Source: Streptomyces sp. NBC_01116 (GTDB taxonomy: Bacteria > Actinomycetota > Actinomycetes > Streptomycetales > Streptomycetaceae). Taken from it: DNA of 64,000 bases. The position numbers and the translations under genes were made by a program. Below are positions 58,960 to 64,000 of the stretch, one piece after another. Under the pieces are notes generated by a model. The model saw only the letters and a list, made by a program, of their open reading frames with translations, ran no database searches and was not told the DNA's origin. The number at the start of each line of letters is the position of its first letter. The stretch's first letter is position 1. The DNA is taken from contig NZ_CP108644.1 in assembly GCF_041435495.1 (NCBI RefSeq), forward strand, positions 6,061,501-6,125,500. The letters run 5' to 3'.

Positions 58960-59697
58960 ATGACGACGATCACGGACACGACGAACAGCACGGCGAGCGG
59001 CACGGCGACGCGCGGGCACTACCGCAGGCCCGACGCCTCGCACCGCCGTACGGCCGGCTCCGGGGGAGCGCCCGGGGGCAGGGTCTCCGTGGCGGTGTAC
59101 GCGGAGGACCTGATCCTGCAGACCGGCATGATCCACCAACTGCGCGTGCGGCCCGAGATAGAACTGCTGCCGGAGGCCGAGGCGGACCGGGCCCAGGTCT
59201 CCCTGGTCGTGGTGGACATGGTGGACGATCCCACCGTCCAGCTCCTGCACCGCCTCCAGCGCAACACCTCCACCCGCACCGGGCTGGTCGTCGGGTTCTT
59301 CGAGTCGGGCGCCCTCCAGACGATGATCGAGTGCGGGGTCGCCGCCGTCCTCCGGCGCGGTGAGGCCGACCAGGACCGGCTCGTCCACCTGGTACGGGCG
59401 ATGGCCAACGGCGAGGGCGTCCTGCCGGGCGATCTGCTCGGCAAGCTCCTCGACCACGTCAGCTCCCTCCAGCGGACGGTGCTCGACCCCCGGGGGCTCA
59501 CGCTCTCCACCCTCACCGCGCGCGAGGCGGAGATGATCCGGCTGGTCTCGGAGGGCTGCGACACCGCGGAGATCGCGCAGAAGACCTCGTACTCCGAACG
59601 CACCGTCAAGAACGTGCTGCACGAGGTCGCGACCCGGCTCGAACTGCGCAACCGGGCCCACGCGGTGGGCTACGCGATGCGACACGGGCTGATCTGA
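58960..59697 (+). CDS. Atypical LuxR/NarL-family response regulator
   Basis: 245 aa. An N-terminal 40-residue Thr/Arg-rich leader precedes a receiver-like domain: VAVYAEDLILQTG, then LVVVDMVDD. The Asp is present, but the conserved Thr is Gly (LVVGFFESG) and the Lys is Arg (AVLRRGEAD), so standard phosphorylation signalling is doubtful. The C-terminal LuxR domain is intact (LTAREAEMIRLV, DTAEIAQKTSYSERTVKN). ATG 58960 is used. It diverges from the CIS-adjacent membrane protein gene and is the nearest candidate regulator of the CIS locus. Confidence 0.88.
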   Translation: MTTITDTTNSTASGTATRGHYRRPDASHRRTAGSGGAPGGRVSVAVYAEDLILQTGMIHQLRVRPEIELLPEAEADRAQVSLVVVDMVDDPTVQLLHRLQRNTSTRTGLVVGFFESGALQTMIECGVAAVLRRGEADQDRLVHLVRAMANGEGVLPGDLLGKLLDHVSSLQRTVLDPRGLTLSTLTAREAEMIRLVSEGCDTAEIAQKTSYSERTVKNVLHEVATRLELRNRAHAVGYAMRHGLI

Positions 59698-59710
59698 CGG
59701 CCGGGGCCGG

Positions 59711-59796
59711 TAGCCCCGCGCCCTGGCCCGTCGCCCCGCGCCCTGGCCCGTCGCCACACGCCCGGGCCCGTCGCCGCGCGTCCGGGCCCGGACGCG
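59711..59796. repeat. 20-bp tandem repeats ending in a 20-bp palindrome
   Basis: Four 20-bp units (59711-59790) of the form TCGCCCCGCGCCCTGGCCCG with growing divergence. The last unit runs into the perfect palindrome CGCGTCCGGGCCCGGACGCG (59777-59796). Lies just after the LuxR gene; may act as terminator for both convergent genes. Confidence 0.7.
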
Positions 59797-59888
59797 GGGC
59801 CCCGGGCCGCCCGCCTCCGCCTCCGCCGCCGCCCCGGCCCCGGCCTCCGGGCCGCACCGACCCGCGGGGGCGGTCCGCCCGGCCCCCG

Positions 59889-61388
59889 TCAGCGCTCCGG
59901 CGGCCGGGTGCCGTCGGGGCCCGCGAACACCAGCTGCGTCAGCGGCGAGGGCAGCCGGTCGGCCTCCACCGTGACGCGGTACAGCCCGGCCTCGGGGAGT
60001 TCCACGTCCGCCGTCAGCGCGTCGCCGTCCTCCGCGTACGGACGGACCTGGCGGCGGACGGGCCCGTCGACCGCGGCCACCGTGCAGTCGATCCCGGACG
60101 GGTCGTCGGTCCCGGTGATCCGGAGCGACCAGGCTGCCCCCGGCGTCACGTAGTCCGGGACCGTCAGGCCGACGCCCTCGTCGGCCATGTCCGGGCCGAG
60201 GTCGTCCTCCTCCAGGAGGAAGTCGACGACCGCGTGCCGGGCCGCCCGGCCGCTCGCCAGCGCACCGTGCTGGAGCGCGATCGGGACCGCCCCGCCCTTC
60301 ACGGACGCCGAATCCCGGTGGACCGTGCCGTCCCCCCGGGCGCCGAAGCGGAGAGCCACCCCGTTCTCGTCACGCCTCAACTCACCGTCCCGATGGGTGC
60401 GGAAGCAGTACTCGGACGCCAGGACCTCGCCGTTCTCCAGCCGCAGGGACTGCACCGTGTCCTGGTGCACCCCGGCGACCGGCCGGTGGCGGGGCAGTTC
60501 GTGCCCGGCCAGCCGGTCGAGGAACTCCCCGGACGTCTTGGCGAGTTCCTCGTCGCCGCCGAGCGCCCCGACGTCCGACGGAGCGAGCCGGCGCGCCCCG
60601 GCGCCCTCCTCCAGGCAGACGAACCGGGGCAGCAGGTCATGGACGCCCGGCATCGTGGCGGCCAGGGCGGCGAGCCTGCGGTGCGGCAGCGGCAGCGGCG
60701 CGCCCTGCGCGGCGTTGAGGATGTTCGCCGCGACCACGGAGCCCCTGAACGGCGTCCCCAGCGTCATGACACCCCGGGTGTCGGCCGCCAGGTCGTCGTC
60801 GAAGCCCAGGGTGAGCGCCGCATGGGTGACGAGCCCGCCCATGGAGTGGGCGACGAAGACGAGCCGCCCCTCGCGCTCGTCGAGCGCCCGGCGGCGGGCC
60901 GCGGTGTGGGCCCGGTGCCCGCGCCACCGCTCCAGGTGCTTGCGCGCCTCCGCCGCGAGGAGCCGGGCGTTGACCTCGACCGGCAGCCGCCAGTCGTAGG
61001 GGAACGGCAGCACCGCGTCGGGATGGGCGACGGTCTCCTCGACCGCCCGGGTCAGCTTGTGGTACGGCTCGATGCCCCGTACGAACGGGATCCACACCGG
61101 GGTCCGCAGGAGCCTGCGCGGCTGGACCCGCCCGTGCTCCCCGGCCCGTTCCTCCGGCGTGAGATGCAGCGGGGCGAGACCGTCCCGGGTCAGCCAGGCC
61201 TTGGCGAGCCACTGGGGATGCGCCAGCCCCCAGAGCACTTTTTTGGTGACGGTGTCGTACAGCTCGCTCCCCATGATGCCGGGGACGATCACGACCGCGT
61301 CGTGCGTGACGGCCGGAGTCACCTCCGGATGAAGACGGGGGGTGCTGCCGGGGCTGCTGCCCGGATTCGTCTGCGGCGGCTTCGTCAT
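59889..61388 (-). CDS. LCAT-like lipase/acyltransferase
   Basis: 499 aa alpha/beta hydrolase. Start region VVIVPGIMGSELYD is the conserved LCAT/PDAT-type oxyanion motif, and the nucleophile is Ser about 182 in VFVAHSMGGLVTHA. Further segments FPYDWRLPVEVNARLL and TLGTPFRGSVVAAN fit the same family. The C-terminal roughly 100 residues form a beta domain. No signal peptide, so it would act in the cytoplasm. TAGTCT lies seven bases before the ATG and no ribosome site is seen, so it may be leaderless. It is divergent from the caspase gene with only 18 bases between starts. Confidence 0.85.
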   Translation of the reverse strand: MTKPPQTNPGSSPGSTPRLHPEVTPAVTHDAVVIVPGIMGSELYDTVTKKVLWGLAHPQWLAKAWLTRDGLAPLHLTPEERAGEHGRVQPRRLLRTPVWIPFVRGIEPYHKLTRAVEETVAHPDAVLPFPYDWRLPVEVNARLLAAEARKHLERWRGHRAHTAARRRALDEREGRLVFVAHSMGGLVTHAALTLGFDDDLAADTRGVMTLGTPFRGSVVAANILNAAQGAPLPLPHRRLAALAATMPGVHDLLPRFVCLEEGAGARRLAPSDVGALGGDEELAKTSGEFLDRLAGHELPRHRPVAGVHQDTVQSLRLENGEVLASEYCFRTHRDGELRRDENGVALRFGARGDGTVHRDSASVKGGAVPIALQHGALASGRAARHAVVDFLLEEDDLGPDMADEGVGLTVPDYVTPGAAWSLRITGTDDPSGIDCTVAAVDGPVRRQVRPYAEDGDALTADVELPEAGLYRVTVEADRLPSPLTQLVFAGPDGTRPPER

Positions 61389-61406
61389 GCCTGGAAGACT
61401 AGAGAG

Positions 61407-63509
61407 ATGCGTAACACGGTGGGGGAGTTAGGGCGGAATCAGGCCGCCGAGCAGAGCGAGGCGGAGCGGACCCTGCTCACGCTGGCCGTACGCGACTACG
61501 GCGACGGCGACGAGAGCTTCACCGCGGGCATCGACGAACAACTGGACGTCGTCGCCGAGTGGTGGTCCTCGCCGGGCGCCTCCGCCGGGTTCCACCAGAT
61601 CCCCGCCCCGACCGTGACGGGGCGCGCGCACGTCGAGGACTTCCTCCGGAAGCACCGGGTACGGGAGATGAAGGGCGAGGCGCTGGTCCTGTTCATCACC
61701 GGCCACGGGGTGGCGGGCTCCCGGACACACTTCCTGAAGCTGCCCGACTCCGAGAAGGGGCGCCACCTCAACACCTCCGTCCGCACCACGGACCTCATCA
61801 CCGCGGCACTCGACTCCCACGCCAAGAACGTCCTGGTCATCGTCAACACCTGTTACGCCGGAAAGATCAGCGGCGAGATCGACGAACTGGTCGAGGACAT
61901 CCGCGCCGAACGGCGCAACACCTGCCAGCTCGACGTCCTCGTCACCTGCGGTCACGACCGGCCCGTCCAGGTCAGGCGGTTCTCCACCCTGCTGCGCGAC
62001 GCGTTCGAACGGCTCCGCACCACCGCGGGCATCACCACGCCCCACCTCCGCGTCGTCGACCTCATGTCGGAGTTCGAACGGGGACTGGACCCGGCGGACC
62101 GCAAGAAGCACCGGCTCCACCGGGTGGTCGACGGCAGCGGCGTCCTCACCCCCACCCCCTGCATCCCCAACCCCGGATACCGCCGGGTGCGCGAAACGGC
62201 CGGCGCGGACGGACGGCACGCGGGACCGGCCGGCGACTACTGGCTCGACCGGGCCACGGGGCGCACCCAGGACGAGGACCCCGGCTGGTACTTCCGGGGC
62301 CGCGAGGACCTCAACCGCAGCATCGCGGCCTTCCTCAGCCCGGCCCGCACCCGCGGGGTCCTCCTCGTCACCGGCAGCGCGGGCAGCGGCAAGTCCGCCG
62401 TGCTCGCCCGCGCCGTCGTCCTGAGCGACCCCGCGTTCCGCGACGACCCCCTCTGCAAGACGGCGCTCGACCTGTCCGCGCCCGACACCGTCCCCGCGGC
62501 CGACTCCATCACCGGGGCGGTCCTGGCCCGGCACCGGGGCGCGGCGCAGCTGGCCCACGACATCCTCGAAGCCCTGGGGGAGACGCCCCGCCGGGTCAGG
62601 TCGACCGAGGACCCGGTCGTCGCGGCGGCCCAGCAGATCCTGGCCGTGCTCCGGGGCCGTGAGGAAGCGGTCACCCTCGTCATCGACGGTCTCGACGAGG
62701 CGGACGAACGGCAGCGCATCATCGAGGACGTGCTGGCGCCGCTCAACGAGTTCTGCGCGCCGCGGCTGGACCAGGTCCCCGTACCGCGGCTCGACGGCGA
62801 GCCGTTCGCCGCCCCGGAACCCGGCCTGCGGCTGCTGATCGGCGTGCGCTCCAGCCGCCCCCTCAGCGAACCGTCCGTGGAACCGCCCGAGGAGGAGCAG
62901 GGACACAACGAAGCGCTGAAGGCCGTCTTCCCGACGGCCGAGGAGCAGCGTACGGACGATGAGGCCAGCGAGAAGGACATCGCCGAGTATCTGCACGCCC
63001 TCATCTGCGAGGGCGGTGGGCACCGCGCGTCGGCCGAGGACGCGGCCCGGCTGGTCGCACCCGTCGTCTGGCCCTCCTTCATCGACGCGCGCATAGCCGG
63101 GGAACAGCTCCGCTCCGCCGAGGACCCCGCCGCCGTCGCCCGGCAGCCGGAGTGGCAGAGGATGCTGAACAACGGCACGGAAGGGCTCCTCAAGCGCGAC
63201 CTCGTGCTGGTCGAGGGCGACGGGCTGCCCTCCGAGGTGGCGCTCGCCCTCCTGCGCGCCGCCGCCTTCGCCGGGGGAGCGGGCATCCCCTGGTCCACCA
63301 TCTGGCCGCAGATGGCCCGGGTGCTGCTCGGCCGGCCCCTGCCGGACTGGGACGAGATGATCGCGAAGCTGCTCAAGAGCCGGCTCAACGGCTATCTGGC
63401 CCACGACCACGAGGACGACCGGCGGGTCTACCGGCCCGCCCACGAAACGCTGGCCGAGGCCCTGCGCGACGTCGACACGGACTGGCTCGGCCGGGGCGGG
63501 GCGGCATGA
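61407..63509 (+). CDS. Caspase-like protease fused to a STAND-type P-loop ATPase
   Basis: 700 aa. N-terminal caspase/peptidase C14 fold with catalytic His about 100 (LFITGHGVAG) and Cys about 149 (IVNTCYAGKI). After a linker comes a STAND/NACHT-like NTPase: Walker A GSAGSGKS (about 325-332) and Walker B VIDGLDEADE (about 426-435), then a winged-helix-like region. It has no C-terminal sensor repeats; the next gene, overlapping by ATGA, probably supplies them. This resembles bacterial death or phage-defence proteins in which the STAND ATPase activates the protease. The start is ATG 61407, only 18 bases from the divergent lipase start. Confidence 0.88.
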   Translation: MRNTVGELGRNQAAEQSEAERTLLTLAVRDYGDGDESFTAGIDEQLDVVAEWWSSPGASAGFHQIPAPTVTGRAHVEDFLRKHRVREMKGEALVLFITGHGVAGSRTHFLKLPDSEKGRHLNTSVRTTDLITAALDSHAKNVLVIVNTCYAGKISGEIDELVEDIRAERRNTCQLDVLVTCGHDRPVQVRRFSTLLRDAFERLRTTAGITTPHLRVVDLMSEFERGLDPADRKKHRLHRVVDGSGVLTPTPCIPNPGYRRVRETAGADGRHAGPAGDYWLDRATGRTQDEDPGWYFRGREDLNRSIAAFLSPARTRGVLLVTGSAGSGKSAVLARAVVLSDPAFRDDPLCKTALDLSAPDTVPAADSITGAVLARHRGAAQLAHDILEALGETPRRVRSTEDPVVAAAQQILAVLRGREEAVTLVIDGLDEADERQRIIEDVLAPLNEFCAPRLDQVPVPRLDGEPFAAPEPGLRLLIGVRSSRPLSEPSVEPPEEEQGHNEALKAVFPTAEEQRTDDEASEKDIAEYLHALICEGGGHRASAEDAARLVAPVVWPSFIDARIAGEQLRSAEDPAAVARQPEWQRMLNNGTEGLLKRDLVLVEGDGLPSEVALALLRAAAFAGGAGIPWSTIWPQMARVLLGRPLPDWDEMIAKLLKSRLNGYLAHDHEDDRRVYRPAHETLAEALRDVDTDWLGRGGAA

Positions 63510-64000
63510 GCGGGCCCGCCGGCGACGACCGGCACGCGGAGATCCACCGCCAACTGGCCGCCGCGCTCGCCGAACTCGTCCCCGACGACCCCAGCATCCC
63601 GCCCCACCCCTATCTGCGGCGGCACCTTGCCCAGCACGCCGCCCAGGGCCGCGTCCTGGACGACACGCACGTGCCGCCCGCCCTGCTGCCCTGGGAGTCG
63701 AGTTCCGGGCTCGGCCGCCTGCTGGCGGGGGAGGGGGACCGGCCGGCCCATCAGCAGTGGCTCCAGGCCTGGGCCACGCTGGAGCCCTACTCCCGTGATC
63801 TCAGCCCGCTGTCCCGGCTGTCCAGCCTGCACCTGGCGCACCACGCGGCGATGTCACGGGACACGCCGTCGCCGCGGCCGGGCACCCGGCAGACGCCGTT
63901 CGACCGCTCGCCCGTCACGCCGCTGTGGAGCGACTGCGCGAGCCCGGACAACGTGTGGGCGCTCAACGACGCCGACGTCGTCTCCCTGACGTCGGCCGTC
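63506..64000 (+). CDS. Partial gene coupled to the caspase gene, probable beta-propeller sensor
   Basis: The first 165 codons are in the window. ATG 63506 overlaps the caspase-STAND stop. The visible part begins with a helical region HPYLRRHLAQHAAQGRVLDD, the segment that normally joins STAND ATPases to WD40 repeats, followed at about residue 140 by LWSDCASPDNVWALNDADVV, which looks like the first blade of a propeller. So a protein usually made as one chain appears split over two genes here. The end lies outside the window. Confidence 0.7.
   Translation, partial: MSGPAGDDRHAEIHRQLAAALAELVPDDPSIPPHPYLRRHLAQHAAQGRVLDDTHVPPALLPWESSSGLGRLLAGEGDRPAHQQWLQAWATLEPYSRDLSPLSRLSSLHLAHHAAMSRDTPSPRPGTRQTPFDRSPVTPLWSDCASPDNVWALNDADVVSLTSAV

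What the first reader, a model, noticed from the sequence alone, without database searches (positions are those of the whole stretch)
61407..64000. Caspase-STAND death module next to the CIS, split into two coupled genes
A caspase-like protease with intact His/Cys is fused to a STAND ATPase, and the probable propeller sensor starts in an ATGA overlap. STAND proteins usually carry the sensor in the same chain. Streptomyces CIS have been linked to cell death and differentiation; a caspase module next door could be the executor or an independent phage defence.
Basis: partly seen in the sequence, partly recalled or inferred. Interest (0 to 1): 0.75.

Follow-up and report, generated by a model that had tools for sequence, protein, structure and literature searches.

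The report
Mobile five-gene caspase suicide module
Next to an injection-machine locus, this Streptomyces carries a mobile five-gene set that resembles a miniature animal death machine (a caspase on an Apaf-1-like switch, a separate propeller sensor, a phospholipase and a predicted NAD-destroying toxin with its antitoxin), most likely a cell-suicide defence; its position beside the injection machine is incidental.

Summary
In detail: 61407-63509 encodes a caspase fused to a STAND/NB-ARC ATPase (700 aa), and the next gene starts in an ATGA overlap at 63506 and is a 772-aa WD40 protein ending at 65824. The CIS interpretation fails. In near-identical CIS loci of four other genomes the site is empty, and an ~8.0-kb block (59698-67713) sits exactly between the LuxR gene and the next gene only in one five-species clade. 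The block is a conserved five-gene module: an LCAT/lysosomal-PLA2-like hydrolase (59889-61388, minus), caspase-STAND, WD40, a RES-domain protein and an Xre/MbcA-like antitoxin. I found 33 loci in 26 unrelated genomic contexts, and complete copies on both plasmids I opened of 26 with homologues. The RES subfamily occurs in 13 of 296 Streptomyces genomes, always beside the caspase-STAND gene. An alpha/beta-hydrolase adjoins 87 of 89 caspase-STAND loci. Splitting of sensor and switch recurred on the tree. Best reading: an apoptosome-like abortive-infection system in which the propeller senses, the ATPase assembles, and the caspase licenses a phospholipase and possibly a NAD-consuming RES toxin. 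Composition and co-inheritance are shown; activation steps and phage defence are inferred. New variant of a known kind.

The parts
59889..61388 (-). Alpha/beta-hydrolase (499 aa), LCAT / lysosomal phospholipase A2 (PLA2G15)-like, with a C-terminal filamin/Ig-like domain (about 400-492). Predicted triad Ser182-Asp353-His374. Divergent; starts 18 bp from the caspase gene.
   Evidence: Pfam LCAT E 3.5e-6, above cut-off; S182, D353, H374 invariant in 17 homologues; model matches PLA2G15 Z 20.3, Tle4 Z 19.7, LCAT Z 18.9; conserved with the module.
61407..63509 (+). Caspase (about 17-255, His100/Cys149) fused to STAND NB-ARC ATPase (about 267-692, Walker A GSAGSGKS, ends at the winged helix), 700 aa
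63506..64000 (+). Start of the WD40 propeller protein (772 aa with a short helical N-terminal arm). The gene continues beyond the window to position 65824 (numbering extended). Further module genes beyond the window, extended numbering: RES-domain predicted NAD+-consuming toxin 65981-66682 (+; longer start possible at 65864), and Xre/MbcA-like antitoxin 67180-67563 (+).
   Evidence: WD40; equals the C-terminal half of fused relatives. RES: Pfam E 1.7e-7, above cut-off; R25, E71, S190 invariant in 18 homologues; 13 of 13 beside caspase-STAND. Xre: profile matches MbcA 6fkg_C E 1.3e-4; Pfam PF09722 sub-threshold; annotated XRE on plasmids.
59698..64000 (.). In-window part of the inserted block (whole block 59698 to about 67713, extended numbering) relative to the empty site, between the LuxR-type regulator stop and the gene at 67798
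   Evidence: alignment of G114, G202, G125 and G056 stops at 59697-59705 and resumes at 67697-67715.

Best explanation
A mobile, self-contained abortive-infection (cell-suicide) module built like an apoptosome. The WD40 chain is the sensor. On binding its trigger it releases the NB-ARC/STAND ATPase, which oligomerises with ATP and clusters the caspase domains fused to it. The active caspase then licenses effectors encoded beside it: the LCAT/PLA2-like hydrolase, which would attack membrane lipids, and, in this Streptomyces subclade, the RES toxin, which would consume NAD+ once its Xre/MbcA-like antitoxin is cleaved or displaced. Shown here: gene content, folds, intact catalytic residues, co-inheritance, mobility, recurrent splitting of sensor from switch. 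Inferred: trigger, oligomerisation, which partner the caspase cleaves, cell death and phage protection. The neighbouring CIS plays no part.
For: Folds and catalytic residues of the parts. Same five genes in the same order in 33 non-duplicate loci in 26 contexts and on plasmids, one copy between IS elements. RES found only with this module, 13 of 13 genomes. A hydrolase of one of two types beside 87 of 89 caspase-STAND loci. The same hydrolase type is fused C-terminally to TPR or TPR-STAND proteins elsewhere, that is, in effector position. Gene distances correlate, r 0.83-0.96. WD40 is the most divergent chain, as expected of a sensor (mean pairwise identity 40% versus 50-64%). Precedents: a caspase activates a pro-nuclease in the canu defence system (PMC12799240); a caspase always has an alpha/beta-hydrolase neighbour in VMAP conflict systems (PMC7159879); MbcT (RES) kills by NAD+ phosphorolysis (PMC7291234).
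Against: No experiment; no PADLOC family covers the caspase, hydrolase or RES parts. The antitoxin lies about 500 bp downstream of the toxin, unlike classical RES-Xre operons (my knowledge), so RES-Xre could be a separate addiction unit. The gene correlations have no host-phylogeny control. No cleavage site or gating insertion was identified. The hydrolase model is only moderate (pLDDT 72).
Confidence: 0.6

Rival explanations
1. The caspase-STAND, WD40 and hydrolase form the defence system, while RES-Xre is an ordinary toxin-antitoxin addiction pair that stabilises the mobile block and is not controlled by the caspase.
For: Caspase-STAND plus hydrolase occurs without RES-Xre in sister clades (L112, L115, L083, L084, L116); the module sits on plasmids and in many contexts; RES and Xre are separated from each other and from WD40 by gaps.
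Against: This RES subfamily is never found alone in 296 Streptomyces genomes, unlike a free-standing TA; order and co-inheritance are strict.
Confidence: 0.28
2. The module is the death executor of the Streptomyces CIS.
For: Adjacency in five related species; Streptomyces CIS cause regulated cell death (PMC10066040, PMC10020575, listed).
Against: Empty sites in close CIS loci, 26 contexts, plasmid copies, module in genomes without a detected CIS sheath (G087, G150), non-significant co-occurrence.
Confidence: 0.04
3. The module serves development or kin recognition (hyphal cell death, heterokaryon-like incompatibility) and not phage defence.
For: Relatives lie mainly in Actinomycetota, many of them mycelial; the WD40 sensor diverges fastest.
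Against: Patchy distribution (13 of 296 Streptomyces) and plasmid carriage suit an accessory defence better than core development.
Confidence: 0.08

Closest known systems
Apaf-1 / CED-4 apoptosome with caspase
   Same: NB-ARC switch, WD40 sensor as in Apaf-1, caspase protease; model Z 17 to Apaf-1 and 15-17 to caspases
   Different: Caspase is in the same chain as the switch and the propeller is in another chain; bacterial; adds a lipase and a RES-Xre pair
VMAP ternary conflict systems (Kaur et al. 2020, PMC7159879)
   Same: Caspase always paired with an adjacent alpha/beta-hydrolase; enriched in multicellular bacteria
   Different: No MoxR, vWA or VMAP components; a STAND-WD40 core instead
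canu caspase-nuclease defence (PMC12799240)
   Same: A caspase licenses a separately encoded effector next door
   Different: Effectors here are a phospholipase-like hydrolase and a RES toxin, not an MBL-fold nuclease; STAND-WD40 control
EACC1-caspase two-gene system
   Same: Caspase domain is related in sequence (NF047832, E 1.5e-9)
   Different: Score far below the family cut-off; no EACC1 gene seen; the 5' neighbour is a divergent hydrolase
RES-Xre / MbcTA toxin-antitoxin
   Same: RES domain with conserved R, R, E, S; MbcA-like partner
   Different: Toxin first, antitoxin about 500 bp downstream; locked into a caspase module
Human LCAT / lysosomal phospholipase A2 and the T6SS lipase effector Tle4
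   Same: Alpha/beta-hydrolase fold and triad (Z 19-20)
   Different: C-terminal Ig/filamin-like domain; encoded beside a caspase

Membership tests
STAND (NB-ARC/NACHT) switch with caspase effector | Caspase fold with His-Cys dyad | tested here: met
   H100/C149 invariant; MALT1/caspase Z 15-17; NCBIfam caspase E 1.5e-9
STAND (NB-ARC/NACHT) switch with caspase effector | NB-ARC-type P-loop ATPase with winged helix | tested here: met
   AAA_16 above cut-off; NRC1 NB-ARC Z 18.3, Apaf-1 Z 17.1 over about 267-692
STAND (NB-ARC/NACHT) switch with caspase effector | C-terminal superstructure sensor in the same chain (usual, not universal) | tested here: not met
   WD40 sensor is a separate, overlapping gene here, though fused in relatives
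STAND (NB-ARC/NACHT) switch with caspase effector | Ligand-triggered oligomerisation | not testable with these tools
   Needs biochemistry
RES-Xre (MbcTA-type) toxin-antitoxin | RES domain with its conserved R, R, E, S | tested here: met
   Pfam RES above cut-off; R25, E71, S190 invariant, R50 nearly; residue set as described in PMC3482391
RES-Xre (MbcTA-type) toxin-antitoxin | Cognate Xre/MbcA-type antitoxin | tested here: met
   Profile versus PDB MbcA E 1.3e-4; but Pfam PF09722 only 14.8 bits against cut-off 24.5
RES-Xre (MbcTA-type) toxin-antitoxin | Tightly coupled two-gene operon, antitoxin normally first | tested here: not met
   Toxin first, gap about 500 bp
RES-Xre (MbcTA-type) toxin-antitoxin | Toxicity by NAD+ loss neutralised by the antitoxin | not testable with these tools
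   Needs assay
LCAT/PLA2G15-like phospholipase | Alpha/beta-hydrolase fold with Ser-Asp-His triad | tested here: met
LCAT/PLA2G15-like phospholipase | Phospholipase activity | not testable with these tools
   Needs assay
VMAP ternary system | MoxR, vWA and VMAP genes | tested here: not met
   No VMAP domain in P0002 and none of these among the five conserved module genes
EACC1-caspase system | EACC1-associated caspase above family cut-off, preceded by an EACC1 gene | tested here: not met
   37.6 bits against 140; 5' neighbour is a divergent hydrolase
Contractile injection system accessory gene | Conserved linkage to CIS loci | tested here: not met
Known PADLOC defence system | Match to a PADLOC model | tested here: not met
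   No significant match for caspase-STAND, hydrolase or RES; the WD40 chain matches only a repeat-containing model

The most novel reading that the evidence does not exclude
A bacterial apoptosome whose caspase releases two effectors at once: it activates a phospholipase and cleaves the Xre antitoxin to free a NAD+-consuming RES toxin, that is, a toxin-antitoxin pair put under control of a caspase.
Probability: 0.3. Interest if true: 0.82.

Novelty: new variant of a known kind. Interest (0 to 1): 0.6.

Why it matters
Caspase-STAND-WD40 proteins have long been known in actinomycetes (my knowledge) without a defined output. The conserved neighbours named here (a hydrolase in nearly every case, a RES-Xre pair in one subclade) give concrete candidate substrates and effectors, so what bacterial caspases cut becomes directly testable. 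The sensor as a separate, coupled gene also makes sensor swapping and reconstitution easy.

Tried and rejected
CIS linkage: tested by genus-wide co-occurrence, adjacency, empty sites and flank comparison, and rejected. Frameshift artefact for the split: rejected, because the overlap and the split are conserved across many species and plasmids; a few scattered split calls in the other half of the tree (L091, L104, L118) could still be assembly errors. Hydrolase as an unrelated neighbour: rejected. Pfam Peptidase_C14 does not recognise the caspase; structure and NCBIfam did. The RES alignment found no PDB relative by sequence. Rfam found nothing in the block. Promoter and terminator scan uninformative. 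VMAP loci of the genomes sampled mostly lack these hydrolases; only one of 20 has a relative of the second hydrolase type beside VMAP. No clear target-site duplication at the insertion ends. First Xre distance correlations (0.52-0.56) were depressed by a fragmented row and were recomputed.

Full report
What is there. The window lies at G000:C1:6061501-6125500 of an 8.7-Mb genome, a Streptomyces judging by its nearest named relatives. At 61407-63509 (+) a 700-aa protein is encoded, and at 63506, in an ATGA overlap, a second gene begins. I read it past the window end: 772 aa, WD40 repeats, stop at 65824 in extended numbering. Pfam sees the P-loop ATPase but not the caspase. Three other lines support the caspase: invariant His100 and Cys149 in 15 homologues, NCBIfam's caspase model at 1.5e-9, matched by 15 of 15 family members though below that model's cut-off, and an AlphaFold2 model (pLDDT 81.7) whose residues 17-255 match MALT1 (Z 17) and human caspases (Z about 15) and whose residues from about 267 to 692 match the plant NB-ARC protein NRC1 (Z 18) and Apaf-1 (Z 17). 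So the protein is a caspase joined to an Apaf-1-like switch, and the propeller that Apaf-1 carries in its own chain is here a second chain.

The unit is larger than the finding. Comparing neighbourhoods of homologues, the same five genes recur in the same order: a divergent alpha/beta-hydrolase (59889-61388, starting 18 bp from the caspase gene), caspase-STAND, WD40, a RES-domain protein and a small Xre-like protein. Of 296 Streptomyces genomes, 13 have this RES subfamily, and in all 13 it lies beside the caspase-STAND gene. In the named-genome collection plus the sampled genomes, RES and Xre were found only together with the hydrolase. After removing duplicates there are 33 complete module loci in 26 different flanking contexts. 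Twenty-six Streptomyces plasmids carry a caspase-STAND homologue. I opened two of them: both hold the complete module, and in one it lies between IS110-family and IS5-family transposases. Pairwise distances of the five genes correlate at r = 0.83-0.96, without a host-tree control.

The parts. The hydrolase passes Pfam's LCAT cut-off, keeps Ser182, Asp353 and His374 in 17 homologues, and its model (pLDDT 72) matches lysosomal phospholipase A2 (Z 20), the T6SS lipase Tle4 (Z 19.7) and LCAT (Z 19), followed by a filamin/Ig-like domain. RES passes Pfam's cut-off and keeps the arginines, glutamate and serine described for the domain (PMC3482391). The small protein's profile finds MbcA of the MbcT-MbcA complex, 6fkg, at 1.3e-4, although Pfam's antitoxin model stays below its cut-off. 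Annotation of the plasmid records independently calls the pair RES and XRE.

The hydrolase rule. Of 89 caspase-STAND loci, 41 have the LCAT-type hydrolase next door, 46 a second, shorter hydrolase with a VGVHGIRQ...AHSLGS...NPHN pattern, and 2 neither. Pfam support for the second type is weak, so its assignment rests mainly on motif. Starting instead from the LCAT-type hydrolase, 14 of 20 extra loci lie beside a relative of the caspase-STAND protein, and in 3 the hydrolase is fused to the C-terminus of a TPR or TPR-STAND protein preceded by genes that look like effector-associated domains. This places the hydrolase in the effector role. Kaur et al. (PMC7159879) reported that caspases in VMAP systems always have an alpha/beta-hydrolase neighbour, so this pairing is a known theme carried by a different core.

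History. In a tree of 85 caspase-STAND sequences (quick method, some long branches) all module loci with RES-Xre form one clade of 32 rows (SH-aLRT 99). Its neighbours have the LCAT-type hydrolase without RES-Xre, and more distant ones are mostly single-chain caspase-STAND-WD40 proteins with the second hydrolase type. This is consistent with stepwise accretion. The split/fused label needs at least 8 changes, so splitting or fusion recurred. The break falls between the winged helix and the helical arm that precedes the propeller. WD40 is less conserved than the caspase chain in 99% of pairwise comparisons.

The CIS. CIS-adjacent loci are one tip of that tree: this genome, S. griseus NCTC13033, Streptomyces sp. 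McG3 and rh34, and S. parvus. G114, G125, G202 and G056, whose CIS sheaths are 94-99% identical to this one, have the same surroundings without the block. Alignment breaks at about 59697 and resumes at about 67700. Module genomes have a CIS sheath in 11 of 13 cases against 174 of 283 others, Fisher p = 0.14. The adjacency is therefore most simply one insertion event inherited by a few species.

How it most likely works. WD40 senses, NB-ARC assembles, caspase domains are brought together, and the caspase acts on the products of adjacent genes. The nearest tested precedents are canu, where a caspase activates a pro-nuclease in phage defence (PMC12799240), and MbcT, a RES toxin that kills by NAD+ phosphorolysis (PMC7291234). 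I propose that the caspase licenses the phospholipase-like hydrolase and, less surely, frees RES by removing its antitoxin. None of these steps is shown here. A literature search for RES with caspase found no report of this combination, within an open-access library only, and PADLOC has no model for it.

Noticed in passing
G000:C1:460355-462226 (L055:5776-10293): The same genome carries a single-chain caspase-STAND-WD40 paralogue (about 1,500 aa) with the second, shorter hydrolase type beside it: a natural fused comparison for the split pair.
   Followed up: partly
L145:3081-7607, L146:4727-9259, L148:4055-8392: LCAT-type hydrolase fused to the C-terminus of TPR or TPR-STAND proteins, preceded by genes that look like effector-associated domains: apparently a different STAND-lipase system.
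   Followed up: partly
L170:5514-12724: A VMAP locus with an alpha/beta-hydrolase related to the second hydrolase type and, nearby, a protein-arginine deiminase homologue (Pfam PAD, E 2e-113).
   Followed up: no
G000:C1:8222363-8222956 (L008): The only Pfam Peptidase_C14 hit of the genome lies in an 1,853-aa open frame, separate from the module.
   Followed up: no
G000:C1:4453307-4454881: A second CIS-type sheath gene (64% identical) elsewhere in the genome.
   Followed up: no
window 61388-61407: Hydrolase and caspase start codons are 18 bp apart and divergent, leaving no room for conventional promoters between them; leaderless transcription or later starts are likely.
   Followed up: partly
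L007:6184-6680 (window numbering 66683-67179, beyond the end): A gap of about 500 bp between RES and its antitoxin, also seen in relatives and with no Rfam match in this genome; its role is unexplained.
   Followed up: partly
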